Shown: positions 5,922-30,890 of the stretch, one piece after another
Layout of the letters: every line of letters starts with the position of its first letter
How positions within the stretch are numbered: the stretch's first letter is position 1
Assembly (NCBI RefSeq): GCF_900114495.1
Contig: NZ_FOZI01000001.1
Span: 1,259,469-1,323,468, forward strand
Direction: 5' to 3'
DNA: 64,000 bases
DNA from: Dyella sp. OK004
GTDB lineage: Bacteria; Pseudomonadota; Gammaproteobacteria; Xanthomonadales; Rhodanobacteraceae
Notes under the pieces: model-generated
What the model was told of the DNA's origin: nothing
Database searches by the model: none
The model's input: only the letters and a program-made list of their open reading frames with translations
Translations under genes and position numbers: made by a program

Positions 5922-6941
5922 TCAGTTGTAGCTCATCGCGACAGTTGCTTGAGCACTTACTTTTCCCGCGTCCACCGAGGCTCCGGTCTTGTAGTACTGA
6001 GCCGTCAATGGCAATACTCCTCGGCCACCAACGATCGGGATCGTGCGCGCATTGGTGGTGCCGTTGGCTCCAATGGTCTGGCCATCGTTGGAAAACAATC
6101 GCACGCCTACGCCCGTGGCACCGGCCGTATTCCTGAAAATGACCGGATTGACCGGATCCGGGGCTCCGGTGAAAGTGAAAGTGGCCGCCACCGCATTGTT
6201 GATGCAGTTATCAACGGTGATGGTGAACGGCTTGTCAGCCGCACTCACGCTGTTGATGAAGTCGCTTATTTTTGCCGAATTGAGCGTCACGGTTTTGTTG
6301 ACATCACCCGCACTAATCGAACACGTAGGGTCTGGGCCAACTATTTCGACGGGACCAAGGTAGAGAGCCACAGGCGACAAAGTTCCAAAGTTAAGCAGGT
6401 TACCTGTTTGACCGATTTGTCCACCGTTAACCGTACCGCTGGCGACAGGGTCCGCCGTCTTATAGAAAACAACGGTGTAATTCACTGCATAAAGGGTTGG
6501 CTTGTTTATTGGGCCCCAGAACGTCCAACCGCGATCGATCGGGTAGGGAGGAGCCGTGAATGGCTGTCCAATCTGCCCCGCGGCGCTGCTGAGCGACAAG
6601 ATCATGCCCACGCCAGACACATTGGTATTCAGTGCCAGACCGAGCGTAGAGCCAAGATTGAGATTCGAATAGGACGTATACGTCACCGCCCGATGATAAA
6701 TGCGCGCCACCCCTTCATTGCCTACGCAAATGACATTGGTTGGATTGTAGGGCAGGGTTTGACGGGCAAGTTCATCGCCGATTTTTGTGCCAACAGAAGC
6801 AACAATCTTCGGAATGTTGAATGTCACGGCGACCGTTGATGAGGCGATGCAAGTGGCGAATGTCTGTCCGTTTGCCACCATGAAAAGTATCGCGAGTACA
6901 GTAATTTTAAATATGCGCGGCCTGCAATTTTCATTCTTCAT
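5922..6941 (-). CDS. Two-domain fimbrial adhesin, third of three in tandem
   Basis: The 339-residue protein has a signal peptide (ITVLAILFMVANGQTFA) and ends in a type 1 pilin domain (CSISAGDVNKTVTL, DNCINNAVAATFTFTG, QTIGANGTTNARTIP, and the terminal VAMSYN) preceded by about 180 residues without pilin similarity. This is the architecture of FimH-like tip adhesins, where an N-terminal lectin-like domain binds a receptor and the C-terminal pilin domain is held by donor-strand exchange. A ribosome site AAAGGGA precedes the ATG. It is the last gene of the fimbrial operon and its pilin half is clearly paralogous to that of the gene ending at 8403. The receptor is unknown. Confidence 0.85.
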   Translation of the reverse strand: MKNENCRPRIFKITVLAILFMVANGQTFATCIASSTVAVTFNIPKIVASVGTKIGDELARQTLPYNPTNVICVGNEGVARIYHRAVTYTSYSNLNLGSTLGLALNTNVSGVGMILSLSSAAGQIGQPFTAPPYPIDRGWTFWGPINKPTLYAVNYTVVFYKTADPVASGTVNGGQIGQTGNLLNFGTLSPVALYLGPVEIVGPDPTCSISAGDVNKTVTLNSAKISDFINSVSAADKPFTITVDNCINNAVAATFTFTGAPDPVNPVIFRNTAGATGVGVRLFSNDGQTIGANGTTNARTIPIVGGRGVLPLTAQYYKTGASVDAGKVSAQATVAMSYN

Positions 6942-6988
6942 GAAAATCCCTTTCCAATTCCTTGTGGGAACACGAACAACCTTTCGTT

Positions 6989-7073
6989 ACGCTGGATAAC
7001 CAGCTTCGCTGTTATGAAGTGCCTCCGGTTTTCGCCGAAGCGCTTCATAACAGCGAAGCTGGTTATCCAGCGT
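6989..7073. repeat. Long perfect inverted repeat between two adhesin genes
   Basis: Arms 6989-7019 and 7043-7073 are 31-base perfect complements, with further partial pairing in the 23-base centre. The sequence CCAGCTTCGCTGTT and GCCTCCGG recur in the repeat at 56179-56220, so it is a member of a dispersed repeat family in perfected form. It could form a very stable hairpin in the mRNA between the second and third adhesins. No T-tract follows on the minus strand, so a classical terminator is unlikely. Confidence 0.9.
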
Positions 7074-7178
7074 CTTTGTTTATCAGGAGCTTGAAGTCAC
7101 AGGAGCCCGACTCTTGCCCCCTTTTTTCGGGGTCCATCGGGATAACGGGCTTGATGGATGGTTTTTCGCCACGGCCGC

Positions 7179-8165
7179 TCATTTGTAAGTGAACGTGGCT
7201 GTCATCCTGGCGTTGGCAGCGCCCGACGAGACATCACCGATACGATAATAGCGCGCTGCTATCGGGATACTCAATGTGCCGTCCGGAGCAGCATTACTGA
7301 TCGGGTAAGTTTGTCCACGCACAGCATTGGCGTTGTTGCGCACCAGCTGCACCGCAATACCCTTTGCAGCATTTGCATCCGCCGTCAACCCAAAAACGTT
7401 ATTATTTCCCGAAACCGCAACGCCATTGATGCTCATGGATACATTCGGCGAATTTTGGCAATTGAGATTGATATTATAATTTTGACTCAAGGAAGACGTG
7501 GAACCTACGGCAGTAAATATGCTTGCCTGCACATTTCCAAGAGGAATAACCACATTCGTTGTAGTGACATTGCACGTAGCTGGCGTTACTCTCGCATTAA
7601 CATAGGGGCAATAGGATATGCCGTTACCGTTCTGCCCTACGACTATTGAGGTTATACAATAAGGGCCGGAATTAATAAATGATATATCACCCGTTTTCAC
7701 AAGTTCAATGGCAATACTTCCCTGAAAAAACAATTTTCCGCCACCTGGACCTATTCTCCAAGTTTTTGCCAAAAAACCACCAACACCACTTAAGCTATCC
7801 AGTGCTACAGGCGCATTATCCACAAGGATTCTAACTCCAAGACCGCTCGCCATGCCGCTAGCAGTGTAAACATTCGTGTAGCCAGGAACGAGCTGCCAAC
7901 CCAATCGCCCAAAACCAATTCCTGCGATCCCACTTTGGCCACTTGAACATGCACCATACTGCGTACGCGGAATTGTATCTGAACCACGCACGATAACTTG
8001 GCCGTTGGCGAGATTGCTCGGCACATTCGCAGTAAGAGTTTCAGTTCGATTATATATCGACGTGACAGATGTGCAGTTAGCGGCGAAACTGTCGTGCCAA
8101 AAATAAAATAAGCCCATGAAAAGTAAAAAATTCAGCCACATTTTTCCACGACAACCATTAATCAC
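7179..8165 (-). CDS. Two-domain fimbrial adhesin, second of three
   Basis: The protein (328 residues from this start) has a signal peptide (MWLNFLLFMGLFYFWHDSFA region) and a C-terminal pilin-like domain ending RYYRIGDVSSGAANARMTATFTYK. I chose GTG 8165 because GAGGAG lies eight bases upstream; ATG 8141 is an alternative. The C-terminal domain is less like the other two adhesins and has the form seen in FimH-type subunits (CNVTTTNVVIPLGNVQ, LNCQNSPNVSMSINGV). The gene is visibly AT-richer than most of the window, suggesting separate origin. It probably forms an alternative fimbrial tip. Confidence 0.82.
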   Translation of the reverse strand: MINGCRGKMWLNFLLFMGLFYFWHDSFAANCTSVTSIYNRTETLTANVPSNLANGQVIVRGSDTIPRTQYGACSSGQSGIAGIGFGRLGWQLVPGYTNVYTASGMASGLGVRILVDNAPVALDSLSGVGGFLAKTWRIGPGGGKLFFQGSIAIELVKTGDISFINSGPYCITSIVVGQNGNGISYCPYVNARVTPATCNVTTTNVVIPLGNVQASIFTAVGSTSSLSQNYNINLNCQNSPNVSMSINGVAVSGNNNVFGLTADANAAKGIAVQLVRNNANAVRGQTYPISNAAPDGTLSIPIAARYYRIGDVSSGAANARMTATFTYK

Positions 8166-8402
8166 AACAATTTCTCCTCGCAGTGAAGATTGAAAATTCC
8201 ATGAGCTTATTGACGCCCGACTGCGGACGAGACTCAACTATCGCGAGCTTTACGGCCATATAAAAAATATAGACTTAAACTGACCGCCGTCATTCAAATT
8301 TCATATCAAACACTTAATATCACTGTGGCGAATTGTGCCAAACGCGACTATTTAGCTTGCGCATCGTCAAGACATTTAGTGGTGGCGTTCCACGCAATCG
8401 CA

Positions 8403-9377
8403 TCAGTTGTAGCTCATGGTGACGGTTGCTATAGCAGTAACCTGTCCCGCGCCAACGGTGGCTGCGGTTTTGTAGTACTGGGCGCCCAGCGAGAGGACGG
8501 CTTGTCCACCCTGGCCGCCGGTAACCTGAGCCGTTTGCACGTTGTTGGTGCCGTTGGCGCCGATGGTCTGGCTGCTGTCGCTGCCCGGATAAATGCGAAC
8601 GCCTACGCCTGTGGCGCTTCCCGTGTTCTTGAACAACACCGGGTTGGCCGCATCGGCCGTACCGGAGAAGGTAAAGGTGGCCAGGCTCGCGTTCTGGCAG
8701 TTGCCCGCCGTAAGGGTAAAGGGCATATCGCCCGCACTCGGGCTGCCATTGAAATCGCTGCTCTTCACCTTTGGCAAGGTCACTGTTTTATTGATATCAG
8801 TGCCGATGATCGTGCAAGTTGGAACAACAGGCGGAACGATATTACCACCAGTAATTCTATGAATAATTATATTAACTCCGTCGAAGCTAAAATAGCTCAT
8901 ATCGCCAAAAGTAAGAGCCCCTCCACTCGTAATATCTGCTGTTTTAATTAAATAGACGGAATAAGAACTAGTATCCGCAAAGGTCTGAAATCCGGACGGC
9001 CAATATAAGCTCCGCAATCCATATAAATAGGCAACAAGTATCCCAACTCCTCGAATATTGGTTTCATACAATTGGTTCTGATAATGACTCAAACTTGAGT
9101 CTGTAGGGATCACTGCACTCTTAGTTGGAAATAACGGCCCTTTTAAGCCACCAAAGGTTGCCGTGTCGCCCCGGCAATAAATACTCGAACCAATTCCGAC
9201 TGGCCGAATTTGGGCAATGGTGTCACCAACCTTAAGAGATGGCGAAACTGCCACCTGTCCAAAATTGTAATTTATAGTACCAAGATAAGGCATACATCCC
9301 GCCGCTGCCTTGCTCGGCAAAAGCGCAAATGCAATCATGAATAATATAAAGGTCGTTAATAATTTTTGCCTGCACAT
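8403..9377 (-). CDS. Two-domain fimbrial adhesin, first of three
   Basis: The 324-residue protein begins with a signal peptide (QKLLTTFILFMIAFALLPSKAAA) and has an unfamiliar N-terminal domain of about 165 residues, then a pilin domain (TCTIIGTDINKTVTL, TAGNCQNASLATFTFSG, IGANGTNNVQTAQVTGG, terminal VTMSYN). ATG 9377 was chosen for its signal peptide and the upstream GAGTGG; ATG 9413 is possible. The DNA for the N-terminal half (about 8830-9340) is AT-rich whereas that for the pilin half is GC-rich and matches the minor pilin upstream, which suggests domain shuffling. It follows the minor pilin by 73 bases. Confidence 0.85.
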   Translation of the reverse strand: MCRQKLLTTFILFMIAFALLPSKAAAGCMPYLGTINYNFGQVAVSPSLKVGDTIAQIRPVGIGSSIYCRGDTATFGGLKGPLFPTKSAVIPTDSSLSHYQNQLYETNIRGVGILVAYLYGLRSLYWPSGFQTFADTSSYSVYLIKTADITSGGALTFGDMSYFSFDGVNIIIHRITGGNIVPPVVPTCTIIGTDINKTVTLPKVKSSDFNGSPSAGDMPFTLTAGNCQNASLATFTFSGTADAANPVLFKNTGSATGVGVRIYPGSDSSQTIGANGTNNVQTAQVTGGQGGQAVLSLGAQYYKTAATVGAGQVTAIATVTMSYN

Positions 9378-9450: not shown

Positions 9451-10005
9451 TCAGTTGTAGCTTGTATTAACAGTCGCCACCGCCGAAACCGAACCGGCCG
9501 TTGCAGTGACGCTCGGCAAATGCCAATAACCCGCCTGGAACGTAAGCACCGCCTGGCCACCCGTGATCTGCGCCGTCAACACGTTGTTCGTCGCATTGGC
9601 CCCGATGGGCACTCCGGCACTCGATTCCAGCTCCACCGCCACGCCTTGCGCGGTTCCGGTGTTTTGCCAGCGCACGAGATCGGTGGCGTCGGACGTACCT
9701 GTGAAAGTGAACGTCGCAGTGCTCAGGCCGGCATCGCAGTTGTCGACGGTAAGCGTGACGTTCTGGAGGGCCGCTGCTCCAGAAGCCGGCAGATCGGAGG
9801 TCTTGATGGTAGCCAGGGTCACGTTCTTGTTGACGTCACCCACTGAAATGGAACAAGTGCCTGCATCGATGGTGCCATTGATGGTGACGGTTGCCGTGTC
9901 TGCACCGGCGGTTCCGGCCGTGGCCGCCAACCCCATGGCCAGGAGTAGCCCGATCAGGGCGCGCTGCGATGCTGGCTTGCACGAATGGTTCAATCGACGT
10001 TCCAT
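9451..10005 (-). CDS. Minor fimbrial subunit (type 1 pilin)
   Basis: The 184-residue product has a signal peptide (ALIGLLLAMGLAATAGTAGA) and a single pilin domain: conserved cysteines in GTCSISVGDVNK and VDNCDAG, and a C-terminal beta strand AVATVNTSYN. ATG 10005 has AGGAGA seven bases upstream. The pilin domain is closely related to the C-terminal halves of the adhesins at 8403 and 5922, so one of these likely arose from the other. It sits immediately after the usher gene, the usual place for adaptor or tip subunits assembled by the chaperone-usher route. Confidence 0.87.
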   Translation of the reverse strand: MERRLNHSCKPASQRALIGLLLAMGLAATAGTAGADTATVTINGTIDAGTCSISVGDVNKNVTLATIKTSDLPASGAAALQNVTLTVDNCDAGLSTATFTFTGTSDATDLVRWQNTGTAQGVAVELESSAGVPIGANATNNVLTAQITGGQAVLTFQAGYWHLPSVTATAGSVSAVATVNTSYN

Positions 10006-13013: not shown

Positions 13014-13763
13014 TCAGGGTGAGAGCGATGCTTCTTTTTCGCCTAGCGCGCCGTAATCGTTGATCACTGTAAAAAGAGCGCGCGCGTTGCTGCCAGGGCG
13101 CGTGGCCAATGCGCTGATGGGGAACGTAGCGCTTTCACCTGGCGCCACCATGCCACCCCCCTGCTCCTGAATGCTCCGCTCGCCGACCTTGACACCAAGA
13201 CTGGCAAAGTTGACGTAGTAGGGCGTGGGATTGCTCACTTCCAGCGCAAAACCCTTGCCATCCTTGCCGCTAACCAGCTTCCACGTCAGTTTGTCAGATG
13301 CCTCAGTCGCGTTCCCCGATAGACCGTCTGGACGAAAGAACACCTTGATGCGTGTGCGGAAGGCGAACTGCAGCAGATTGCGTTCATTGGTCGCCTGCGC
13401 CTTTGGCGGCACTTCGAGCACGTTAAGCCAGAACAGCGACTCTTTGTCGGTCGGCAACGGTTCTTTGGTGTAGACCATGCGCAATGCCTGACCCTTGCCT
13501 GCATCGAGGCGATTGATCGGCGGCGTGATCGTAAACGGTACTTTGGCGGTATCGGGCGTCGATTTATCGTCGCCACTATCCAGCCAGGATTGCACCAGCA
13601 CCGGCGTTTTTCCTTCGTTGGTCAAACGCACCGTGACTTCTCTTTCCTGAGCCGGGTACACCACACGCGTGCCGCCGATCACCACGCTCGCCTGGCTGCT
13701 TCCGACGAACATGGCGGTCGCGAGCAACAGGCCCGACATGGCATAGCGCAATACGTTAGACAT
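13014..13763 (-). CDS. Periplasmic fimbrial chaperone (PapD/FimC type)
   Basis: The 249-residue protein has a signal peptide ending SSQAS and the two-immunoglobulin-domain chaperone fold: VVIGGTRVVYPAQEREVTVRL at the mature N-terminus, the family motif FWLNVLEVPPKA, and NPTPYYVNFASLGV in domain two. Such chaperones bind pilins in the periplasm by donor-strand complementation and pass them to the usher. It lies between the major pilin and the usher, and is of normal length. The start at ATG 13763 has GAGGTG upstream. Confidence 0.93.
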   Translation of the reverse strand: MSNVLRYAMSGLLLATAMFVGSSQASVVIGGTRVVYPAQEREVTVRLTNEGKTPVLVQSWLDSGDDKSTPDTAKVPFTITPPINRLDAGKGQALRMVYTKEPLPTDKESLFWLNVLEVPPKAQATNERNLLQFAFRTRIKVFFRPDGLSGNATEASDKLTWKLVSGKDGKGFALEVSNPTPYYVNFASLGVKVGERSIQEQGGGMVAPGESATFPISALATRPGSNARALFTVINDYGALGEKEASLSP

Positions 13764-13836: not shown

Positions 13837-14412
13837 TTAGTTGTAAGTAACCTTGTAGACCACGGCCGAGCTGACCAGACCGGCGGTCGGAGCAGCATTC
13901 ACCGCCAAGTACTGCGCACCCATGCGGATGATCGCCTGGTTGTTGGCAATCGCCGGCGACATGACCACGGCCGACGCGTCGGACAGGTTGATGGCCGTCT
14001 TGTCGTCCATGGTCAGCTGAATTTCGGCGTTGGTAGCTTCGCCGGTCAGCACGTTCTTCAGCGCGCCGGTGCTGGCGTCGATGTGCGAATCCAAGCTGTC
14101 GAACATCAGGGAGGCGACCTTGCCGTTCTGGCAGGTGGTTTCGCCAGGTGCACCGAACTTCACCGAGAACGGGGTGTGGCCAGCCACATCACCAGCGGCG
14201 GTCATGTCGGAGGCCGGAGTCGGTGTCAGCTGCACGGTGAAATTGCCGGTGCCTTCGTCGGTGTTCTCGCCACCCTGGATGGTGCAGGTGGTATCGGTCA
14301 GTGCACCCTTGAAGTTGATGGTGCCGCCGGCGCTCGAAGCTGCGCTGGCCGTACCGACAACGGCAATACCCATGGCCAGAGCGATGGCGGAGGCAATCTT
14401 GAAGTTCTTCAT
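13837..14412 (-). CDS. Major fimbrial subunit (type 1 pilin)
   Basis: The 191-residue protein begins with a signal peptide (IASAIALAMGIAVVGTASA), followed by a pilin domain with the first cysteine in TDTTCTIQGGEN, the second in ETTCQNGKV, and the C-terminal strand AVVYKVTYN. ATG 14412 is preferred over an upstream in-frame ATG because AAGGA lies eight bases before it. As first gene of the operon, before the chaperone, it is probably the shaft subunit. It diverges from the IS remnant and secretion operon across a repeat-rich control region. Confidence 0.9.
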   Translation of the reverse strand: MKNFKIASAIALAMGIAVVGTASAASSAGGTINFKGALTDTTCTIQGGENTDEGTGNFTVQLTPTPASDMTAAGDVAGHTPFSVKFGAPGETTCQNGKVASLMFDSLDSHIDASTGALKNVLTGEATNAEIQLTMDDKTAINLSDASAVVMSPAIANNQAIIRMGAQYLAVNAAPTAGLVSSAVVYKVTYN

Positions 14413-14671
14413 AATGTCATTCCTTAAATTGAGTCCCGCCATCTAGGCAGGTCTGGTCGATCGACCGGAGAGCTTGCTGTTGAGAAACAAATGTTGACGG
14501 CGTGAACCGGAAGAACCAGCAGGCGCCCCATCCCTTGGGGCACACCTGAAAACCCCTTGCCACTCCGTGGCAATCCGTATTCACACCGCCCAACAACGCA
14601 CCCTTCCTCGAGTGCGGCGCCAGTCTAGGCGGCGCGATTTCGCGCTCCTATAGAAGAACTTTTAAAGTGCG

Positions 14672-15597: not shown

Positions 15598-17820
15598 GTG
15601 AACTCCAATGCCGCCGATTCCACGACACCGAAGCGCCTTGATCTACAGGCACGTTCGGCCGTCGTAGATACGCTTCTAGCCAGCCTTATGTGGCTGTGCA
15701 AGCACCACCAAATCGATAAAAGCGCGCAGGCGCTGAAAGCCGGCCTGCCGGTCGGCGGCATGCTGGAGCCATCGCTGGCACTGGCCGCGCTCGAGCAGTC
15801 GGGTATGTCCGCTGCGGTGGTGGAACGCAAGGTTGCGCAGATCTCCGCGCATTTGTGGCCGGTGGTTTTGCTCCGAAAGGATTACGGCGGCTGCGTGCTG
15901 CTGAGTCATCGTAAGACGGACGATGGCGTGCGCTATCGCGTGGTCCTGCCTGAACTCGGCGATGACGCGGTGGAGATCGACGCCGACGAAATGGATGCGA
16001 CGTACGTCGGCTTCGCGATCCTGGCCAAGCCCAAGGCCAAGGTTGATCACCGTGCCGGCGCGCCGGAGCCGGAGCGTGCTGGCCATTGGCTAATCAGCAC
16101 ACTGTGGCGCTATCGCCGCTATTACGGCAATGCGGCGTTGGCGACGGTACTGGTCAACGTGCTGTCGCTCGCCAGCATTTTTTTCACCATGAACGTGTAC
16201 GACCGCGTGGTACCGAACTACGCCGTGGTGACGATGTGGTCGCTGGCGATCGGCGTGGCGACCGCCATGATCTTCGAAGGTCTTTCGCGTTTTATCCGCA
16301 GTTACATACTGGATATCGCCGGCAAGAAGGCGGATCTGGTGATGGGTAGCATGCTGTTTCGCCAGGCGCTGGCGATTCGAATGGAATACAAACCCAGCTC
16401 GCCTGGCACGTTCGCCAATCAGTTGCGCGAGTTCGATTCGGTGCGCGACTTTGTCACCTCGGCAACGCTGTCGGCCATTGCTGATCTGCCGTTCGTGCTG
16501 TTGTTTGTCGGCGTGATCTTTGCCGTCGGTGGACCGCTCGGATGGGTGCCGCTGTTGCTGATTCCGATCGTGATCATCGTCAGCGTGGTGGTGCAGTGGC
16601 CGCTGGCGCGCATCATGAATGAGAACTTGCGTGAGACGTCGCTCAAGCAAGGCGTGTTGATCGAATCGATCGAAGGTCTGGAGACGTTAAAGGCCGTTGG
16701 TGGCGAGAGTTTCATGCAACGCCGCTGGGACCGGTTCAGCGCATTGGCTGCGGCCACCTCGATGAAGTCGCGGCATCTGTCTGGCTTGGCGACTGGTCTC
16801 ATCACCTTCTTTCAGCAGATCCAGACCGTAGCGATCGTGGTGATCGGCGTGTATCTGATCGAAGCCAAGGAGCTGACCCAGGGCTCGCTAATCGCCACAG
16901 TGATGCTGGCCAGCCGCGCCATTGCGCCGCTGAATCAGGTGATTGGCTTGGCGGTGCGCTATCAGCAGGCCAAAGTGGCGCTGAAGTCCATGAACCAGCT
17001 GATGGCGATGCCGACTGAGCGTAACGCCGAGCAGGACTATCTCGCCGACCACGAGCTCAGCGGCCAATTGCAACTACAGGATGTCGGCTTTTCCTATCCT
17101 GTACCGATGGGGCAACCGGCACCCCCGCCGATGCTCAGCAGCATCAGCTTCACGGTCGCGCCGGGCGAGCGCGTTGGCATCGTGGGCAAGGTCGGTAGCG
17201 GAAAATCGACTTTGCTCAAGGTTATCGCGCGTCTATACGAGCCAACCGACGGCCAACTCCTGGCTGATGGCTTGAACGCCTCGCAGATCGACCCGGCAGA
17301 TTGGCGCCATGCGGTGGGTTACGTGGGCCAGCACTCGCGATTGTTCTACGGCACCTTACGCCAGAACATCCTGATCGGCCGGCCGAGTGCCACGGCGCAG
17401 GAGTTTCTCGACGTGCTCCGTCTGACCGGCCTGGAGAGCATCGCCGCACGTCATCCGCTCGGCGTGAATTTACCCATCGGTGAGACCGGCGAAGGTTTGT
17501 CGGGTGGTCAGCGGCAACTGGTGGCGCTGGCACGCGCGCTGATCGCACGTCCGAAAGTGCTTCTACTCGACGAACCGGCCAGTGGTATGGATGCCCAAAC
17601 CGAGGCGCGCTTTGTCGAACAACTCAAACACGTCATGCATGGGCAGACCTTGCTGCTTGTTACGCATCGTCCCTCGCTGCTGACACTGGTTGACCGCGTG
17701 CTGGTGATGGACGAAGGCAAGGTAGCGATCGATGGCGACAAGGCCACGGTATTGGCGCAGCTTTCCGCCGCCCAAAAGGTACCGACCGCGCGGGCCCTGG
17801 CGCAGGAGGACGCGGCATGA
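15598..17820 (+). CDS. Type I secretion ABC transporter/permease (LapB-like)
   Basis: The 740-residue protein has an N-terminal C39-like domain (about residues 20-150) lacking the QxxxxxC catalytic motif, so it should bind and not cleave its substrates; then a six-helix membrane domain starting LATVLVNVLSLASIFFTMNV, and an ATPase domain with Walker A GKVGSGKST near residue 532, signature LSGGQRQ, Walker B VLLLDEPAS and a terminal THRPSLL switch. It powers export in one step through both membranes. The start is GTG 15598. The adaptor gene overlaps its stop by four bases (ATGA), a sign of translational coupling. Confidence 0.93.
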   Translation: MNSNAADSTTPKRLDLQARSAVVDTLLASLMWLCKHHQIDKSAQALKAGLPVGGMLEPSLALAALEQSGMSAAVVERKVAQISAHLWPVVLLRKDYGGCVLLSHRKTDDGVRYRVVLPELGDDAVEIDADEMDATYVGFAILAKPKAKVDHRAGAPEPERAGHWLISTLWRYRRYYGNAALATVLVNVLSLASIFFTMNVYDRVVPNYAVVTMWSLAIGVATAMIFEGLSRFIRSYILDIAGKKADLVMGSMLFRQALAIRMEYKPSSPGTFANQLREFDSVRDFVTSATLSAIADLPFVLLFVGVIFAVGGPLGWVPLLLIPIVIIVSVVVQWPLARIMNENLRETSLKQGVLIESIEGLETLKAVGGESFMQRRWDRFSALAAATSMKSRHLSGLATGLITFFQQIQTVAIVVIGVYLIEAKELTQGSLIATVMLASRAIAPLNQVIGLAVRYQQAKVALKSMNQLMAMPTERNAEQDYLADHELSGQLQLQDVGFSYPVPMGQPAPPPMLSSISFTVAPGERVGIVGKVGSGKSTLLKVIARLYEPTDGQLLADGLNASQIDPADWRHAVGYVGQHSRLFYGTLRQNILIGRPSATAQEFLDVLRLTGLESIAARHPLGVNLPIGETGEGLSGGQRQLVALARALIARPKVLLLDEPASGMDAQTEARFVEQLKHVMHGQTLLLVTHRPSLLTLVDRVLVMDEGKVAIDGDKATVLAQLSAAQKVPTARALAQEDAA

Positions 17821-19049
17821 AGATGCCCGCCAAGCCACGCGGCACCACGACGCTCATGCATCCGGGCGATGCTGCCTATATCGGCGATATCAAGGAAGCG
17901 ATGCTCGCCCAATCCACACCGGGCGCCAAGGCCGTGCTGTATCTGATCGCCACGGTAATGGTGGTCGGTATGACGTGGGCGCATTTTGCACGCGTCGAAG
18001 AAGTCACACGCGCCGAAGGCAAAGTGATTGCCGCCGGTGGCGAACAGCAGATCCAGAGCCTGGACGGCGGCATCATCGAAGAGATGCCAGTACGGGAAGG
18101 CGAGACCGTGGCGAAAGGGCAGCTGCTGCTCAAGATCGATCCCACGCGCGCCAATGCCGGCTATCGCGAAGTGCAGTCAAAGGTCATCGGCCTGAAGGCC
18201 ACCGTGGCGCGCCTGAAAGCCGAAGCCTATGGGCAGGCGCTGAGCTTTCCTGACGATGTGTTGCGGGATACCAAAGTGGTGAAGGAGGAAACGCAAACCT
18301 TCGAGGCGCGTCGACGCGCGCTGGATGAGAGCGTGGTCTCGCTGCAGAAAAGCTACGACCTGGCCATGAAGGAGCTCGCACTGTCCGAGCCACTGATGCG
18401 TAAAGGCCTGATGTCGGAAGTCGAGATCCTGCGTATGCGCCGCGATGCCAACAGTTTTCAGATGCAGATCGTGGAGCAGCGTAATCGCTTCAAGGCCACG
18501 GCCAATTCGGAGTTGTCACAGGCGCAGCTGGAGCTGGCGCAGACCACCGAGAAGCTGGCCGGCAATGCCGATGTGGTCGATCGCACCGAAATCCTTGCGC
18601 CGGTGCGCGGCATCATCAAGAACATCCGCATCAAGACAATCGACGGTGTGGTGCGTCCCGGCGAGACCATTATGGAAATCTCGCCCATCGACGAGCAGTT
18701 GCTGGTGGAAGGCAAAATCAAACCTTCCGACGTGGGCTTTGTCCATCCGGGCCAGATGGCCACGATAAAGATCTCCGCCTATGACTATGGCATCTACGGC
18801 GCGCTGAAAGGCAAGGTTGAACGGGTCAGCCCCGACACACTCGAGAACGAGAAGAAGCCAGGCGACGAAACCACCTATTACCGGGTGGTGGTACGCACCA
18901 ATGCCAATGCGCTGACGGCGGGCGGCAAACAACTGCCGATTATCCCCGGCATGGTCTCGACCATCGACATTCGCACCAGCGAAAAAACTATTCAGGACTA
19001 CATCCTGAAACCGCTGTTCAAGGCGCGCGAAGCATTCCGCGAGCGATAG
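17817..19049 (+). CDS. HlyD-family periplasmic adaptor of type I secretion
   Basis: The 410-residue membrane fusion protein has one N-terminal transmembrane helix (AVLYLIATVMVVGMTWAHFA), a lipoyl-like half motif (VIAAGGEQQIQSLDGGII), a long alpha-hairpin (about residues 105-245) and a beta-barrel with RGIIKNIRIKTIDGVVRPGE and GMVSTIDIRT. It spans the periplasm and links the ABC transporter to the TolC-like channel. The start codon overlaps the transporter stop. It resembles the LapC/HlyD class used by large adhesin exporters. Confidence 0.93.
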   Translation: MKMPAKPRGTTTLMHPGDAAYIGDIKEAMLAQSTPGAKAVLYLIATVMVVGMTWAHFARVEEVTRAEGKVIAAGGEQQIQSLDGGIIEEMPVREGETVAKGQLLLKIDPTRANAGYREVQSKVIGLKATVARLKAEAYGQALSFPDDVLRDTKVVKEETQTFEARRRALDESVVSLQKSYDLAMKELALSEPLMRKGLMSEVEILRMRRDANSFQMQIVEQRNRFKATANSELSQAQLELAQTTEKLAGNADVVDRTEILAPVRGIIKNIRIKTIDGVVRPGETIMEISPIDEQLLVEGKIKPSDVGFVHPGQMATIKISAYDYGIYGALKGKVERVSPDTLENEKKPGDETTYYRVVVRTNANALTAGGKQLPIIPGMVSTIDIRTSEKTIQDYILKPLFKAREAFRER

Positions 19050-19285
19050 CTGCTGCCCGCGTCGAATTTTGGCCATGCGAGCTCTTGACTCCCTCCTCGC
19101 GACCGCAGGAGATGGAGAGAGCTGCACTGCAGAGATTCAACGCTGCGCAAGTTGGACTTTTACGAAAACGATCATTCGGGAGGGGATGAGCGTAACCACG
19201 ACAAACAGGCAACGAAACAGACTCGATGGGTGGTCGATTGAACGCATGTTCGACGGACGCCTAGGGTTTGAGGAGCAATAGATAC

Positions 19286-21115
19286 GTGAACTCGCGCGAC
19301 ACATCATGGGCAAACCGCAACGTGGTCATCAGTCGACAACCGCTGGCCGTGGCCTTTGCGCTTCTCAGTCTTGCGCTGCCCGCGATCAGTGCCGCTGAAC
19401 CCGCGACTGACGCATCGCCAAAGAAGTACGCCTCCTGGCGTGACGAGTTCGACGTTGTCCGATTCGGCGCATCGCGGGTAACAGCGACATCGTCGCCTTC
19501 GCAACCAACGGCGACGAAAACCCAAACCTCTGCGACTCCGAACGATACGACGCGTTCGCCCGCCGCAACGGACGAGCGCATGGCTTCGGTGAGCACAACA
19601 ATAGCCTCACCGAAAGAGAGCGCTCCTGTCGCCGACCTCAGCCCCCAACATTCTGTAGCGAGCCGGGTACCGCCCACACCATCCACGAATGTCGAGTCGG
19701 TGGCTTCCGCGCCGACACCAGCGGCACCGCGTGAGACAAACATCACTAAAGAGGCAGTTGCACGCACTCCGTCTCCCGCGAGTGCGGCGACCGCGACCAC
19801 ATCGCAGACCGTGTCAGCGGCGGTGCTCTCGCAATGGCTCGACGACCAGCCGGTCGACGAAGCGGCGCGCCGTAACGCACCCGGTATCACTGAAACCCAA
19901 CTGCGGCAGCGTTTTTACGACGCGATCCGGGTCGCCGCCGAGCGCAGCCCCAATGTGTCGCAGGCGTTGGCGCAATGGGAGGCCACCCGTTACGACGTGA
20001 ATAACGCACGCGGGCAACGCCTGCCGCAGGTGAAGCTCAGCGGCCAGTCGCCTACCCGGACTTTCGGTGGTCCGACGCCAGCCAGCAATCCAAGTCTCGG
20101 CGCATCGGTGTCGGTAAATGTCACTACGCCAGTGTTTGACTGGGGCACCGGGCGCAAGGCTGTACAGAGCACCCGGCATCTCGCGGAAGCGGCGGAGCAG
20201 GGTTATCAGGCCACGCTGGAAAGTACCGCGCTGGATGTGTCCAACACCCTGCTGGAACTGGGCCGCTATCGCAGCATGACGGCGATCGGCGACGCCTACG
20301 TGAAACGCATGCGTTCCCTGGTCGACATGCTGGCGCAGATATCAGCCGCGGATCAGGGACGGCGCAGCGAGTGGGTGCAGGCAAAAGCGCAGCTACTGCA
20401 GGCCATGGCCAACCGCGATGCCAGCGCAGCGCAGGTGCGGCAGCTGGAAATCAAGATGGGCATTCTGCTCGGCGACCATTCGGTGGCCCTGCCCGCCGAT
20501 GGGATATGGCCGATCCAACCGGCTGACGCGAACCGTCTGCTCGCCCATTTTCAGGACCATCCCGCCATCCGGCAGGCCAAAGCCACGGCGGATGCCGCCG
20601 ACCTGAGCGCCGACGCGCAGCGCGCATCCAAACGGCCGCGGCTGGACTGGGTGGTCAACAAGACCGCTTTCCGCGATGCACAGGGACCGCAGCAACCCTG
20701 GGCCACGTCGCTGCAACTGAGCTGGTCTCTGTTTAGCGGCGGCTCGGACCGCGCGGCCTATCGCGCGGCACTTGCGCGCGCGGATGCAAATCGCCAGCAG
20801 GTGGAAGTGCTCAAACGCAACTACGAATACCAGGTACGCGACGCCGCACAGACCGCGGTCGATGCGTTTGCACGCGCCGACGCGTATGCCGATCTCTCCA
20901 ACGAAACCTTGCAGGTGCGCAAGGCGATGTTCGAGCAGTGGTACCAGCTGGGCAAGCGCAGCCTGCTCGACGTACTCACGTCCGAAACCGATCACTACAA
21001 CGACATGGTCGGTGAAGTCAGTAATCGATTCGATGCGTACGAGGCGGTGTTCAGCGCCTATGACGGTGCAGGAAAGCTGGTGGATTGGCTGGCGGGAGAT
21101 CAGGCGCGCCACTGA
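19286..21115 (+). CDS. TolC-family outer-membrane channel with long low-complexity extension
   Basis: The C-terminal part (about residues 195-609) is an outer-membrane efflux protein: two OEP repeats, beginning LRQRFYDAIRVAAERSPNVS and later PRLDWVVNKTAFRDAQGPQQ, with QWYQLGKRSLLDVL near the end. A signal peptide (AFALLSLALPAISA) precedes it, but between lie about 150 residues rich in Ser, Thr, Pro and Ala, unusual for the family. GTG 19286 is favoured (AGGAG ten bases upstream). The gap from the adaptor is 236 bases with no convincing gene. It completes the three-part secretion system and precedes its likely substrates. Confidence 0.9.
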   Translation: MNSRDTSWANRNVVISRQPLAVAFALLSLALPAISAAEPATDASPKKYASWRDEFDVVRFGASRVTATSSPSQPTATKTQTSATPNDTTRSPAATDERMASVSTTIASPKESAPVADLSPQHSVASRVPPTPSTNVESVASAPTPAAPRETNITKEAVARTPSPASAATATTSQTVSAAVLSQWLDDQPVDEAARRNAPGITETQLRQRFYDAIRVAAERSPNVSQALAQWEATRYDVNNARGQRLPQVKLSGQSPTRTFGGPTPASNPSLGASVSVNVTTPVFDWGTGRKAVQSTRHLAEAAEQGYQATLESTALDVSNTLLELGRYRSMTAIGDAYVKRMRSLVDMLAQISAADQGRRSEWVQAKAQLLQAMANRDASAAQVRQLEIKMGILLGDHSVALPADGIWPIQPADANRLLAHFQDHPAIRQAKATADAADLSADAQRASKRPRLDWVVNKTAFRDAQGPQQPWATSLQLSWSLFSGGSDRAAYRAALARADANRQQVEVLKRNYEYQVRDAAQTAVDAFARADAYADLSNETLQVRKAMFEQWYQLGKRSLLDVLTSETDHYNDMVGEVSNRFDAYEAVFSAYDGAGKLVDWLAGDQARH

Positions 21116-21242
21116 TTCGACGGCTCGGCAGCAAATGAATGCTGTCGGGATGAACAACCTCCCAGGTTCTTGGGAGATCTGCCTGATGAAAAACCCGATT
21201 GACCGATTTGCCCTTTCCCCGTTTGATAAGGATTTTTGAAAC

Positions 21243-24200
21243 ATGAGCGACACTCCCACAAAGCTGCCTGCGCAGCCCATTTACGACAGCGGCCTGTCAG
21301 ATGTTTACAGCACCGAAGCCGCAGCTAGCGCTGTTCCCGGGACACCCGTATCCATCGTCAGGGCGGATGGTGGAGAAGATCTTGGCCCCGGCTACATTGC
21401 CGACGGGACGACGACCGACAATGTGCTGCCGCGCCTGGTCGGTACCGCCGATATCCTCGATATCGGCTGGGATGACGCCGATCGCTGGATCACCATCATG
21501 GACAATGGTGTCGTGGTGGGCCAAGTCTTGGCGGACCATTTCGGTAACTGGGAATATCAGCCCAGTCTCCCATTGAGCACGGGCGAGCATCATTTCACCG
21601 CCGAATTCAGCAAGTATCCCGATGGCCTGGGTGGGAGCCCAGCGAGCGCGCCTTACACCATCGATGTCGAACCTGCCTCAGTGACGATGCCGGGGCCGGC
21701 GCTGACCGAACAAGGTGAGCTGGTATTGCATGTGGTGAGCTACGAGACCAACCCGCGTGGAGATGAGCTGCACAACGGCGACTCGGTGGGCTATCTGCAT
21801 CCGAGTCTTCAGGGCACGGCCGTCGCCGGCAGTTGGGTGACAATCATGGATGGCGCCACGGAGGTGTGCAAAGTCCAGGCTGGTGCCGACGGTCGCTGGA
21901 TCATCGATCCGAGGCTGAGTGAAGGTCACCATAGCTTGTCCGCCATGTTTGCCGATGGCACAGCCACTGCGCCGGTCGACTTCACCGTCAATATCCCGCT
22001 GTCGATCGTCGTTGTTTACGACAACCTCGGTGGCTCGCCGGCCAACCAGCACGGGCAAGAGTCCGGTGGCACCATCGCTTATCCGGGCCAAGGATTCGGC
22101 GGCAAAGCCCATCCGGGCAGTGTGGTCACACTAATGGATGGCGACCATGAATTGGGCCATGCACAGGTCGACCGCAACGGTTCCTGGGTCCTCAAGCTGG
22201 ATACCGACCTGTCGCCGGGCGAACACCATATTACCGTTGTCTCGGCAGACGGGAACGAGGTGAGCCAGTCGTTTGACATCAATTATGTGCCCAACCCGCC
22301 GGCACACGGCGACGTGGGATCACTGTCGTTGAACGACGTACTCGGCACCGGCGAAGGCGAGCTATTCGCCACCGATCACACCCACGACAACGCACAGCTC
22401 AGCACGCACGGCGTTGAGGCGACGGACGACTCGGTGACGAACGGCGTACAGGCAAAAATGCCCGCCATCACCCATATTTACGATGACGCGGATCTCTCAC
22501 AAGAACTCGGCCGAGGGGATACGGCGCATAGTGCGTACCCAACTCTTCGAGGTACGGGCGAGCCGAACAGCCTGGTTGAACTTTGGGATGGTGGTAAATC
22601 ATTGGGTACGGCCCAAGTCGACGGCGATGGCAACTGGTCGTTTACGCCGACCGAACCGCTAGCCGACACAACGCCCAGCACCATCCACTTTCTCTTCGTT
22701 TCGTCGGATGCGGGTGCATCGGATTGGTTTCCCCTCTTTGTCGATACCCATTGGTCGGTAGAAGAGCCGCCAATGATTGGCCACGTATACGACGGCGCCG
22801 ATAGCTCGCATGAAATCGGGTCTATGGGTACCACTCACGACTCGCGTGTGAAACTGGAAGGTACGGCGAAGGCCGGCAGCACCGTGACGATCTATGACGG
22901 CCATACGCCAATCGGTACGGCGCAGGTGGACGGCAACGGTCATTGGGTGTTCGACACGCCCTCGCTCGGCAACGGCGGGCATACGTTGATAGTAGAGGTC
23001 GATGGTCAGAGCAGTGCTCAGTTCTTGATCATCGTGCAAGTTCCTGTCACGCCGCCGCCAATCATCGGCCATGTGTACGACGCTGATGGCTCGCATGAAA
23101 TCGGGTCTATGGGTACCACCCACGACTCGCATGTGAAACTGGAAGGTACGGCGAAGGCCGGCAGTACCGTGACGATCTATGACGGCTACACGCCAATCGG
23201 TACGTCACCGGTAGATGGCCAGGGCCACTGGACGTTCGACACGCCCTCGCTTGGCAACGGCGGGCATACGTTGATAGCAAAGGTCGACGGTCAGAGCAGT
23301 ACACAGTTCCTGATCATCGTGCAAGTTCCTGTCACGCCGCCGCCAATGATCGGCCACCTGTACGACGCTGATGGCTCGCATGAAATCGGGGCTATGACCA
23401 CCACACACGGCTCGCACGTGAAGTTGGAAGGTACGGCGAAGGCCGACAGCATCGTAACGATCTACGATCGCAACACGCCAATCGGCACGGCGCAGGTGGA
23501 CGGCAACGGTCGCTGGATGTTCGACACGCCCGAGCTGGTCAGTGGTGGGCATACGCTGACCGTGTCCGTCGACGGTCAGAGCAGCTCGCAGTTCTCGTTC
23601 ATCGTCCAGCCGGCCTATGTCACACCTACACCGGAAATCAACCAGGTGCAGGAGCATTTGGGTACTCCGAACTACCATGGCGAGCTGACCAGTGGCGCAA
23701 CTACGGCTGATGGCCATCCGCTGATGGCTGGCACAGGGTTAGCCAACAGCATCGTGACGATTTACGACGGCAATGCGCTGATTGGCACGGCAAAGGTGAA
23801 CAATGCCGGCCACTGGGGGACGACGCTGCCCGACCTCGGCGATGGCGTGCACAACATCAGCGTGGTTTCGGCCGATGGCAAAGCCAGTGCGCCGTTTGTG
23901 TTGGTGGTCGAGCATTCCGTTGCACAACCGACGATCGCTTATGCGCATGATGATGTCGGCGCCACACAAGGCAATCTTGCTAGCGGCGGCACCACCGACG
24001 ATACCCATGCCACCTTGCATGGCACGGGCGCACCCAACAGCGTCGTGACGATCTACGACCGATTCGTGGACAGTGCCGGTGGCTCCCACACGGGCATCGC
24101 AGGTACGGCAGAGGTTGACGGAAGCGGGCGCTGGTCGTTTACGCCAAATGCCGAACTGGAATACGGCACGCACCACTTCACTGTGGCAGCAAGCGACTCC

Positions 24201-24494
24201 AACTACAGCCAAGTGTTCACGCTGGTGGTCGATCTTGATTCCTGGATCCCCAATCATGCCGATACATTGTCGTTGAACGACGTGCTTGGTACTGGCGAGA
24301 GCGATCTATTCGCGATGGACCATAACCACGACAACGCACAGCTCAGCGTTCACGACGTCGAAGCCGTGGCGATGAACGACGTGGCCGCCAACGCATCGGC
24401 GACGAATGGCGCGAGTGTCACCGCACACGATGTGGCCGCACTCAACGCTAACCTGGTTTTGCCGCACGAGCAGATGCATACGCATGTGATGTAA
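21243..24494 (+). CDS. Large Ig-repeat protein 1, probable type I secretion substrate
   Basis: The 1083-residue acidic protein has no signal peptide and consists of about nine bacterial Ig-like repeats of roughly 95 residues, each with a core such as GSTVTIYDG, then IGTAQVDGNGHW and GGHTL. No RTX GGxGxD nonapeptides are seen and no N-terminal retention module. The C-terminus carries LSLNDVLGTGESDLF, then HDNAQLSVHDVEA, then LNANLVLPHEQMHTHVM, shared with the next two genes. A second copy of the LSLNDVL to HDNAQLS segment sits internally at about residues 360-390, suggesting gene fusion. Its place behind a type I exporter and the lack of signal peptide support secretion through it; adhesive function is inference. 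Confidence 0.85.
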   Translation: MSDTPTKLPAQPIYDSGLSDVYSTEAAASAVPGTPVSIVRADGGEDLGPGYIADGTTTDNVLPRLVGTADILDIGWDDADRWITIMDNGVVVGQVLADHFGNWEYQPSLPLSTGEHHFTAEFSKYPDGLGGSPASAPYTIDVEPASVTMPGPALTEQGELVLHVVSYETNPRGDELHNGDSVGYLHPSLQGTAVAGSWVTIMDGATEVCKVQAGADGRWIIDPRLSEGHHSLSAMFADGTATAPVDFTVNIPLSIVVVYDNLGGSPANQHGQESGGTIAYPGQGFGGKAHPGSVVTLMDGDHELGHAQVDRNGSWVLKLDTDLSPGEHHITVVSADGNEVSQSFDINYVPNPPAHGDVGSLSLNDVLGTGEGELFATDHTHDNAQLSTHGVEATDDSVTNGVQAKMPAITHIYDDADLSQELGRGDTAHSAYPTLRGTGEPNSLVELWDGGKSLGTAQVDGDGNWSFTPTEPLADTTPSTIHFLFVSSDAGASDWFPLFVDTHWSVEEPPMIGHVYDGADSSHEIGSMGTTHDSRVKLEGTAKAGSTVTIYDGHTPIGTAQVDGNGHWVFDTPSLGNGGHTLIVEVDGQSSAQFLIIVQVPVTPPPIIGHVYDADGSHEIGSMGTTHDSHVKLEGTAKAGSTVTIYDGYTPIGTSPVDGQGHWTFDTPSLGNGGHTLIAKVDGQSSTQFLIIVQVPVTPPPMIGHLYDADGSHEIGAMTTTHGSHVKLEGTAKADSIVTIYDRNTPIGTAQVDGNGRWMFDTPELVSGGHTLTVSVDGQSSSQFSFIVQPAYVTPTPEINQVQEHLGTPNYHGELTSGATTADGHPLMAGTGLANSIVTIYDGNALIGTAKVNNAGHWGTTLPDLGDGVHNISVVSADGKASAPFVLVVEHSVAQPTIAYAHDDVGATQGNLASGGTTDDTHATLHGTGAPNSVVTIYDRFVDSAGGSHTGIAGTAEVDGSGRWSFTPNAELEYGTHHFTVAASDSNYSQVFTLVVDLDSWIPNHADTLSLNDVLGTGESDLFAMDHNHDNAQLSVHDVEAVAMNDVAANASATNGASVTAHDVAALNANLVLPHEQMHTHVM
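22771..23628 (+). repeat. Three near-identical tandem Ig-repeat units within protein 1
   Basis: Units beginning at 22771, 23059 and 23344 have lengths of 288, 285 and about 285 bases and are highly similar at DNA level (for example GTGAAACTGGAAGGTACGGC recurs). Such direct repeats permit copy-number change by recombination. Confidence 0.85.
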
Positions 24495-24506
24495 GCAAAG
24501 ACGAGC

Positions 24507-24535
24507 TTTGTGCCGGCCATGATGGCCGGCACAAA
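24507..24535 (+). terminator. Hairpin after Ig-repeat gene 1
   Basis: Arms 24507-24520 and 24522-24535 are complementary (TTTGTGCCGGCCAT), starting 13 bases after the stop codon. No T-tract follows, so it may be a transcript-stabilising hairpin. Similar hairpins follow the two paralogues. Confidence 0.55.
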
Positions 24536-24735
24536 ACCATATGCATCTGTTACGGGACACCGTGCAAGCCATGCCTTGGCAGTGACATCCGTTGTTCGAC
24601 ATGCGTGATGCAGCGACTTTACACAGACTTTCGAGCTAATGAGATCCCAGCAGTTTCACCCCACCCAAAGGACCGCCAACCAGAACGTTTCATCGATGTA
24701 TGTAGGACTTCAGTGATCAACAACAAGGAATGAAC

Positions 24736-27192: not shown

Positions 27193-27244
27193 GCAGGCGA
27201 TGACGCCGGGCGCACTGATGTTGTTGCCAATGCGCCCGGCGTTC

Positions 27245-27279
27245 GGCCCCGTTCCGGCACATCGTGCTGGAACGGGGCC
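27245..27279 (+). terminator. Hairpin after Ig-repeat gene 2
   Basis: Perfect 11-base arms 27245-27255 and 27269-27279 (GGCCCCGTTCC) with additional inner pairing GCAC/GTGC, 52 bases after the stop. No T-tract. Confidence 0.55.
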
Positions 27280-27378
27280 TCCTGGTCGGTGAGTTGCCCA
27301 TCTTCATCCCGAAGGCGATACCTCAACGAACGGGCTGCATCGTTTCACTTTTTCCAATCTTCAGAATGGAGTTCATGG

Positions 27379-30060: not shown

Positions 30061-30072
30061 GATGAGTGACAA

Positions 30073-30109
30073 CCCGTTCGCACCGGCTGTGACAGCCCGT
30101 GCGAACGGG
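30073..30109 (+). terminator. Hairpin after Ig-repeat gene 3
   Basis: Arms 30073-30083 and 30099-30109 (CCCGTTCGCAC) plus inner GGCTGT/ACAGCC give about 17 paired bases, 12 bases after the stop. There is no T-tract; it may end or protect the substrate transcript. Confidence 0.55.
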
Positions 30110-30245
30110 CCTCATGAACTGTCCCGGCTGATACTGCCGGGACGCTTGCTGCGTCGAAGTGTGCTGACCCATATCCGTCAATACGCTGGCGCCATCCATC
30201 GCCAGCGACACCCATCAGAACGTCCTTACATCATGCAGACCGACG

Positions 30246-30890
30246 TCAGTTGGAGAAGCCTTGCCTTCTCAAGTAATCGAATAGCTCTGCGTCGTTGCGA
30301 ATGCCGAGCTTGCGCATGGCGTCGCTCTTCTGCTTGCTGATGGTTGTGACACCGCGATTGAGCTGATCAGCGATCTGCTTAACTTTCAGACCTGAGGCAA
30401 TCAGCCTGAGCACTTCCATTTCACGGGGCGAAAGCGATTTTTTTCCGTCGCCCGACATGTTTGCGTCGCCCGCTTCCCCAGCAAGGCGTTTAAGCGTCGT
30501 GCTGATGTAGGTATTGCCCTTGTGCACTGTCTGAATGGCGACAGGCAGCTCGTTCATGGAAGAGCCTTTGTCAATCAGGCCAAGCACGCCCAAGGACGAC
30601 ACCATTCGGAGTATTCCGACATTGTTGGAGACGCTGAGCATCAAAATAGGAAGAGTCGGATGGCTCCGTCGGATTCGTTCCATCATCGTATAGCCATCGG
30701 AATGCTTGCTTCCCGGCATCGATAGATCCGTCACCAGGACGTCGCACGGATGCCGCCCCAAATGACCGAGCAACTCGTCCACATTGCTGGCTTCGGCCAC
30801 GATGCCCCCAACTCCACTGGCTTCGATGACAGCCCGCGTGCCAATGCGGACTACGGGATGATCGTCGGCGAGAATGATACGTATAGACAT
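30246..30890 (-). CDS. BvgA/RcsB-like response regulator (NarL family)
   Basis: The 214-residue protein has a receiver domain with acidic pair in ILADDHPV, phospho-acceptor Asp in VLVTDLSMPGSKHSDG (about residue 55) and Lys in LIDKGSS, followed by a LuxR-type helix-turn-helix (LSPREMEVLRLIASGLKVKQ, then VTTISKQKSDAMRKLGI). The DLSMPG plus spacing is close to RcsB and BvgA. It should be phosphorylated through the adjacent hybrid kinase and act on promoters. Its ATG overlaps the kinase's ATG on the opposite strand. Likely targets are the neighbouring secretion and fimbrial operons, an inference from position. Confidence 0.9.
   Translation of the reverse strand: MSIRIILADDHPVVRIGTRAVIEASGVGGIVAEASNVDELLGHLGRHPCDVLVTDLSMPGSKHSDGYTMMERIRRSHPTLPILMLSVSNNVGILRMVSSLGVLGLIDKGSSMNELPVAIQTVHKGNTYISTTLKRLAGEAGDANMSGDGKKSLSPREMEVLRLIASGLKVKQIADQLNRGVTTISKQKSDAMRKLGIRNDAELFDYLRRQGFSN

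What the first reader, a model, noticed from the sequence alone, without database searches (positions are those of the whole stretch)
5922..9377. Three tandem fimbrial adhesins with mosaic composition
The N-terminal (binding) halves are AT-rich and mutually dissimilar, while pilin halves of the first and third are GC-rich and closely related to the minor pilin. This looks like swapping of receptor-binding domains onto a resident pilin domain, giving one fimbria several alternative tips.
Basis: partly seen in the sequence, partly recalled or inferred. Interest (0 to 1): 0.55.

Follow-up and report, generated by a model that had tools for sequence, protein, structure and literature searches.

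The report
Three tip adhesins, one fimbria operon
A bacterium related to the soil genus Dyella carries one set of genes for hair-like fimbriae with three different sticky tip proteins in a row; in one of them the binding half looks swapped in from elsewhere, a kind of part-exchange that related bacteria show more clearly.

Summary
The three genes are two-domain adhesins of a chaperone-usher operon (major pilin, chaperone, usher, minor pilin, then A3, A2, A1) in a Dyella-like genome. The composition claim is only partly right. A3 has a sharp GC3 step (0.33 to 0.73) at the domain junction, the strongest of 100 adhesins compared. A2 is AT-rich in both halves. A1 has no significant step. The pilin halves of A1 and A3 are 62% identical; the minor pilin (51% to A3) groups with minor pilins of other species. 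The binding halves cannot be aligned pairwise, yet RBD-only profiles place them in one MrkD-like superfamily: diverged relatives, not different folds. No second strain of this species is held. Other species show the predicted signature: similar pilin halves under unalignable or silent-site-saturated binding halves (Dyella orthologues, a D. nitratireducens tandem pair) and a cassette exchange in Alcanivorax. Best reading: binding-domain replacement on a conserved pilin domain in a tandem adhesin array, giving alternative tips. Sequence shows it for relatives; it is inferred for A3 and weak for A1 and A2. The operon lies in a 29-kb segment absent from D. subtropica. Tandem adhesins are already known (Salmonella ste).

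The parts
13837..14442 (-). major pilin
   Evidence: PF00419 27.0 bits, cut-off 25.6; in the clade of first-gene pilins of related operons, 20 rows, 97/94
13014..13763 (-). periplasmic chaperone
   Evidence: PapD_N 157.9 and PapD_C 65.7 bits
10019..12913 (-). outer-membrane usher (start codon not certain)
   Evidence: Usher 495 bits, PapC_N, PapC_C; up to 60% identical to ushers of other family members
9451..10005 (-). minor pilin
   Evidence: PF00419 52.3 bits; groups with other species' minor pilins, 100/97
8820..9296 (-). A3 receptor-binding domain, AT-rich (GC3 0.333)
   Evidence: MrkDrd PF22003 46.7 bits, cut-off 27; composition
8406..8819 (-). A3 pilin domain, GC3 0.732; composition change point at codon 199, about 8783
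   Evidence: PF00419 69.6 bits
7602..8078 (-). A2 receptor-binding domain, GC3 0.377 (gene read here from GTG at 8165; start not certain)
   Evidence: no Pfam RBD match; linked by RBD-only profiles; model resembles CupB6, FimH and MrkD1P
7182..7601 (-). A2 pilin domain, GC3 0.486, of another pilin lineage
   Evidence: PF00419 50.8 bits; groups with one adhesin and two pilins of G129, 99/94
6989..7073 (.). REP-like palindrome (37-nt arms) between A2 and A1
   Evidence: inverted repeat; 68 matches in the own genome with 40 of 52 candidates scored; fold z -13.3
6333..6851 (-). A1 receptor-binding domain, GC3 0.561
   Evidence: MrkDrd 19.5 bits, below cut-off; linked by RBD-only profiles; model resembles CupB6, FimH and LpfD
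5925..6332 (-). A1 pilin domain, 62% identical to that of A3
   Evidence: PF00419 72.4 bits
5796..35015 (.). about 29-kb segment holding the operon; absent at the same site in D. subtropica
   Evidence: colinear matching blocks on both sides, 58 bp apart in L243

Best explanation
One chaperone-usher fimbria with three alternative two-domain tip adhesins, produced by modular evolution. The pilin half is kept compatible with the operon's chaperone, usher and first pilin. The binding half, a diverged member of one MrkD-like family, is replaced by recombination with sequences from outside the operon. A3 is such a chimera: an AT-rich binding half joined at the domain boundary to a GC-rich pilin half. 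A1 is its older paralogue by the pilin half. A2 is an independent addition, AT-rich throughout. By established knowledge (recalled), a subunit that begins with a binding domain lacks the N-terminal donor strand and can only sit at the tip; each fimbria should then carry one of the three, with shares set by expression and by affinity for chaperone and usher. Shown: domains, composition, identities, and the contrasts in relatives. Inferred: the direction of transfer for A3, assembly of A1-A3 by this usher, one adhesin per tip, different receptors.
For: Domains. Models of A1 and A2 (mean pLDDT 81.9 and 82.4) have the tip adhesins CupB6 and FimH, and for A1 also LpfD, among their best solved matches. 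The A3 step lies at the domain junction and is the strongest of 100. A1-A3: pilin halves 62% aa and 67% nt identical, RBDs at shuffle level; at codons for identical residues 39 of 82 differ in the pilin half and 21 of 26 in the RBD, p 0.003. A3's RBD is closest to the D. subtropica adhesin (35%), whose pilin half is less similar (39%), while its pilin half is closest to A1 (62%) and a G154 adhesin (54%). Relatives: in orthologous operons of D. subtropica, D. psychrodurans, G022 and D. nitratireducens, five of the six adhesin pairs were computed: pilin halves 74-83% identical, RBD local scores 27, 43, 55, 73 and 99 against a shuffle 99th percentile of 57 and maximum of 73. D. nitratireducens tandem pair: pilin 97% identical over 119 codons with dS 0.17, RBD saturated. 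Alcanivorax group: 97-100% identical just upstream and 83-99% in the pilin half, but 50-77% over the first 525 bases between (L203 against L205 and L192). Changed codons at identical residues are fewer in the pilin half in 16 of 20 tandem pairs.
Against: A1 shows no significant step, and A2 none that isolates the RBD. RBD AT-richness is a general trend (80 of 100). All three RBDs belong to one superfamily, so fast divergence in place cannot be excluded for A1. No donor was found: the A3 RBD matches only 9 genomes besides its own among 233 of the family, at 36% identity or less, and only itself among 369 genomes of the class. The A1-A3 pilin halves are old (dS 1.34, near saturation), and part of their codon contrast comes from unequal base composition. 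Of the five Dyella orthologue pairs, two RBD scores (73, 99) reach or exceed the shuffle maximum, so some of those RBDs are recognisably related. 13 of 20 tandem pairs have no significant codon contrast, and 4 lean the other way. The tandem excess over cross-locus pairs is modest (8 vs 93 non-independent pairs, p 0.011), and cross-locus pairs lean the same way (mean -0.082). RBD dS values rest on poor alignments. The second D. nitratireducens adhesin contains a masked or gapped stretch. No expression or binding data.
Confidence: 0.6

Rival explanations
1. Pilin-domain conversion: A3 entered as a wholly AT-rich adhesin, as A2 still looks, and its pilin half was overwritten by a resident GC-rich pilin domain, which made it fit the operon.
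For: A2 shows an adhesin AT-rich in both halves. In Pseudomonas lactucae three adhesin pilin domains and two minor pilins form one clade, 100/100, as concerted evolution would give.
Against: The A3 pilin half is only 62% identical to its nearest resident copy A1, so a recent overwrite by a gene now in the operon is unlikely. In the Alcanivorax group the odd block is the RBD, with conserved flanks on both sides.
Confidence: 0.2
2. No recombination: tandem duplication of one adhesin, then rapid diversifying selection on the binding halves while the pilin halves were constrained.
For: The RBDs are one superfamily. The RBD diverges faster than the pilin half in many cross-locus pairs too.
Against: Selection on the protein does not explain silent-site contrasts (dS 0.17 vs saturation in D. 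nitratireducens; changed codons 0.23 vs 0.69 in the G126 pair) or the four-fold-site step in A3.
Confidence: 0.15
3. The composition contrast is a generic property of adhesin binding domains (residue make-up, weak codon selection) and says nothing about origin.
For: 80 of 100 adhesins show the same sign.
Against: The A3 step is -0.375 against a mean of -0.069 and sd 0.088 and persists at four-fold sites.
Confidence: 0.05

Closest known systems
Salmonella ste fimbrial gene cluster (PMC3373541, passages read)
   Same: [quoted passage not shown] in several strains a single adhesin gene whose size and composition suggested recombination between the two. The authors also note orthologous chaperone-usher genes next to highly variable predicted adhesins.
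   Different: The passages read do not resolve domains; here there are three adhesins, a composition step at the domain junction, and another host group.
CupB6 of Pseudomonas aeruginosa (PDB 5cyl; PMC5022761, passages read)
   Same: Top Foldseek match of both the A1 and the A2 model; a two-domain tip adhesin whose pilin domain is completed by the donor strand of CupB1.
   Different: The matches are at 15-20% identity with TM-scores of 0.31-0.49; the passages name CupB6 as the tip adhesin of its cluster and no further one.
MrkD-like receptor-binding domain (PF22003; MrkD1P of Klebsiella, PDB 3u4k)
   Same: A3 scores 46.7 bits, above the cut-off of 27; MrkD1P is among the structural matches of A2.
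   Different: A1 is below cut-off and A2 has no match; no mrk model is among the NCBIfam hits listed for the operon's proteins.
FimA/FimF/FimH of type 1 fimbriae
   Same: Pilin halves match FimA and FimF structures by sequence, and A2 and A3 also FimH.
   Different: No listed NCBIfam model reached its curated cut-off for A1-A3.

Membership tests
Chaperone-usher fimbrial operon | PapD-like chaperone, usher and PF00419 subunits in one transcription direction | tested here: met
Two-domain tip adhesin | signal peptide, N-terminal binding domain of about 160-175 aa, C-terminal pilin domain | tested here: met
   the signal peptide was judged by eye and, for A1 and A2, by the predicted N-terminal helix
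Two-domain tip adhesin | placement at the fimbrial tip and receptor binding | not testable with these tools
   needs protein work
MrkD-like receptor-binding domain (PF22003) | score above the curated cut-off of 27 bits | tested here: inconclusive
   A3 46.7 met; A1 19.5 not met; A2 no match. RBD-only profiles link all three at E 4e-11 to 6e-15, best shuffles 0.04-0.11
Domain-swapped adhesin | composition change point at the domain junction | tested here: inconclusive
   met by A3; not met by A1 (p 0.245) or A2 (p 0.055)
Domain-swapped adhesin | different binding domain on the same pilin domain in strains of one species | not tested
   one genome per species held; between species it is seen in relatives

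The most novel reading that the evidence does not exclude
Tandem two-domain adhesins in chaperone-usher operons of many Proteobacteria form a cassette system: the pilin half is homogenised within the operon and serves as a homology arm through which foreign binding domains are exchanged, so that one fimbria samples a shared pool of often AT-rich binding domains; the window operon is one such array, sited in a hotspot that holds different fimbrial genes from species to species.
Probability: 0.35. Interest if true: 0.6.

Novelty: new variant of a known kind. Interest (0 to 1): 0.4.

Why it matters
If the binding domains of fimbrial tips are exchanged as cassettes on a fixed pilin domain, what a fimbria binds cannot be read from its operon type, and bacteria could change targets without rebuilding the organelle. 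The silent-site contrast between the two halves of tandem adhesins is a simple test that can be applied across genomes.

Tried and rejected
Origin of the A1/A3 pilin halves from the minor pilin: not supported by the pilin-domain tree (141 columns for 120 rows, 37 of 117 inner branches open, bootstrap not settled). Three unrelated RBD folds: rejected by RBD-only profiles. A plasmid donor: tblastn of A2, A3 and A1 against 72,556 plasmid records (E limit 1e-5) matched 26, 15 and 17 records, all under 60% identity. A genomic donor for the A3 RBD: nothing above 36% in 233 family genomes, nothing but itself in 369 genomes of the class. Rfam: 0 matches at gathering scores in the window. tRNA: none. 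Promoter and terminator scans were no richer than shuffles (3 vs 5.3 and 13 vs 10.9). A near-duplicate 16-nt stretch upstream of A3 and of the usher was set aside as chance on a rough mental estimate. One search stopped with a script error after its GC3 table; the pairwise part was redone. Paper searches: 'gene conversion' with fimbrial, adhesin and 'pilin domain' gave 0 papers; some searches gave the two papers cited and otherwise only listings that I did not open. All cover open-licence papers only.

Artefacts in counts: some 'adhesins' are pilins with an over-long frame (L094 8504, L157 12465 and L096 7343 among them). One search left out L094 8504; one search left out L094 8504, L157 12465 and L161 6806. 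The last was left out wrongly as an artefact, since one search shows it to match the adhesin profile over its whole length. In one search the L096 row rests on overlapping frames and the L157 row on an RBD alignment of 9 residues (length). One search required an RBD match instead. The loci compared were chosen by me from the best usher or adhesin hits (20 stretches, 8, 7, plus the 80 loci), duplicates by C-terminus dropped.
Full report
WHAT IS THERE. The window lies in a 4.96-Mb genome (G000, contig C8). That identification by length is my inference; on it the window is from a Dyella-like species. On the minus strand, in order of transcription, are a major pilin (14442-13837), chaperone (13763-13014), usher (12913-10019), minor pilin (10005-9451) and the adhesins A3 (9377-8403), A2 (8165-7179) and A1 (6941-5922). 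All three adhesins end in a PF00419 domain. A3 matches the MrkD-like receptor-binding domain (RBD) at 46.7 bits (cut-off 27), A1 at 19.5, A2 not at all. AlphaFold models of A2 and A1 (mean pLDDT 82.4 and 81.9) have CupB6 and FimH, and A1 also LpfD, among their best solved matches; MrkD1P is on A2's list. TM-scores of the full-length matches are low (about 0.3-0.5), and parts of the RBDs are modelled with low confidence. A3 was not modelled.

COMPOSITION. GC3 of RBD and pilin half: A3 0.333 and 0.732; A2 0.377 and 0.486; A1 0.561 and 0.654; minor pilin 0.717, usher 0.706. Among 519 segments of 159 codons from 28 other long ORFs of the window the mean is 0.763 and the minimum 0.572. In A3 the best single change point is codon 199 (support 187-204; pilin domain from codon 187); 0 of 1000 permutations was as strong. 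The step persists at four-fold sites (0.38 vs 0.73). A2 (p 0.055) and A1 (p 0.245) have no significant step. Among 100 adhesins taken as downstream of an usher, 80 have the lower GC3 in the RBD (mean -0.069, sd 0.088); A3 is the most extreme, A2 16th, A1 32nd. So the mosaic is strong in A3 only, on top of a general trend. Other strong cases include Dyella-group adhesins: D. subtropica -0.314, D. nitratireducens -0.267, G022 -0.226.

RELATIONSHIPS IN THE WINDOW. A1 and A3: pilin halves 62% identical over 134 aa, RBDs at local score 51 where shuffles reach 57 at the 99th percentile. BLASTP nevertheless aligns the two proteins over nearly their whole length at 35%. RBD-only profiles, started from each window RBD with the other two kept out, collect 91 RBDs in a set with 97 from outside the window (the count given includes the seed) and find the other two window RBDs at E 4e-11 to 6e-15, with the best shuffles at 0.04-0.11. 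The RBDs are thus one superfamily. A2's pilin half is 27-28% identical to those of A3 and A1 and groups with one adhesin and two pilins of G129 (99/94). The minor pilin is 51% identical to A3's pilin half but groups with minor pilins of other species (100/97), not with A1/A3, against that part of the finding. At codons of identical residues, A1 and A3 differ in 39 of 82 in the pilin half and 21 of 26 in the RBD (p 0.003); part of that contrast comes from their different base composition.

RELATIVES. Orthologous operons of D. subtropica, D. psychrodurans, G022 and D. nitratireducens share the layout major pilin, chaperone, usher, adhesin, pilin or pilins and, at the end, two more chaperones. 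Five of the six adhesin pairs were computed: pilin halves 74-83% identical, RBD scores 27, 43, 55, 73 and 99, so three lie within the shuffle 99th percentile (57), one equals the shuffle maximum (73) and one exceeds it. In D. nitratireducens a second adhesin follows, with a pilin half 97% identical over 119 codons (dS 0.17) and an RBD at score 66; that gene contains a masked or gapped stretch. In a G126 operon the tandem pair has pilin dS 0.38 against a saturated RBD. Three Pseudomonas lactucae adhesins have pilin dS 0.66-0.72 against 1.35-2.62. RBD dS values come from poor alignments and are rough. In the Alcanivorax group, L203 and L205 are 97-99% identical in the 150 bases upstream and 84-99% from base 525 on, but 50-77% between, while L192 and L205 are 97-100% identical over that block: a cassette exchange between corresponding genes. 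Over 20 tandem pairs the fraction of changed codons at identical residues is lower in the pilin half in 16; 7 have p below 0.05, one of them (L157) resting on 9 aligned RBD residues; 13 are not significant and 4 lean the other way. For pairs with an RBD score of at least 180 the mean contrast is -0.168 in 8 tandem pairs and -0.082 in 93 cross-locus pairs (p 0.011). The pairs are not independent, some cross-locus pairs involve genes that are themselves in tandem arrays, and the cross-locus set alone was also limited to 60-97% pilin identity. One well-aligned tandem pair (L227) shows almost no contrast (0.41 vs 0.46).

HOW COMMON. Of 80 named loci with a related usher (the best 80 of 587 that the scan confirmed), 76 could be scored: 0 adhesins in 15, 1 in 50, 2 in 9, 3 in 2. 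One of the two with three counts an adhesin that shares a frame with the usher. Three in a row is rare in this set but not unique.

SITE. Matching blocks that lie at window positions up to 5795 and from 35016 are 58 bp apart in D. subtropica, so about 29.2 kb of the window is missing there. No direct repeat was seen by eye at the ends, and no tRNA is in the window. Whether this is a gain here or a loss there is not settled. Of 6 genomes in the genus, 4 (G000, G002, G003, G005) have pilin-domain or usher genes within about 20 kb of the same WYL-type regulator gene and 2 (G001, G004) have none in the 16-kb stretches read. 'WYL-type regulator' is my naming from the sequence; it was not scanned. 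The segment also carries type I secretion genes and large Big-domain proteins.

MECHANISM. Established knowledge, recalled: pilins are joined by donor-strand exchange, and a subunit whose N-terminus is a binding domain lacks the donor strand and can only be the first, distal subunit. From this, A1-A3 would compete for the tip. That this usher assembles A1 and A2, how much of each is made, and that receptors differ are inference. The palindrome between A2 and A1 (fold -69.8 kcal/mol, z -13.3) belongs to a dispersed family (68 matches in the genome, many being one place read on both strands) and could lower A1 expression; untested.

PRIOR ART. PMC3373541 (passages read; [quoted passage not shown] The general phenomenon is therefore known. 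I saw no domain-resolved silent-site analysis in the listings; these search open-licence papers only, and I opened just two papers.

VERDICT. Observation partly confirmed; interpretation partly supported; a new variant of a known kind.

Noticed in passing
6989-7073: REP-like palindrome with 37-nt arms between A2 and A1; 68 matches in the genome (40 of 52 candidates scored), many of them both strands of one place.
   Followed up: partly
5796-35015: About 29-kb segment absent from D. subtropica at the same site; three other genomes of the genus have fimbrial genes near the same regulator gene.
   Followed up: partly
15598-34581: ABC transporter, HlyD-like and outer-membrane efflux genes followed by consecutive large ORFs, of which the three scanned are rich in bacterial Ig-like (Big) domains: a likely type I secreted giant adhesin, perhaps in several genes (the ORF at 30874-34581 was not scanned).
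   Followed up: no
L221:9812-13189: Usher and a two-domain adhesin in one open frame in Cupriavidus basilensis OR16; could be a fusion or a sequencing error.
   Followed up: no
L192, L203, L205: Binding-domain cassette exchange between Alcanivorax/Alloalcanivorax records with conserved flanks.
   Followed up: partly
L108 (G000:C7:285000-300000): Second chaperone-usher operon in the same genome with one adhesin.
   Followed up: no
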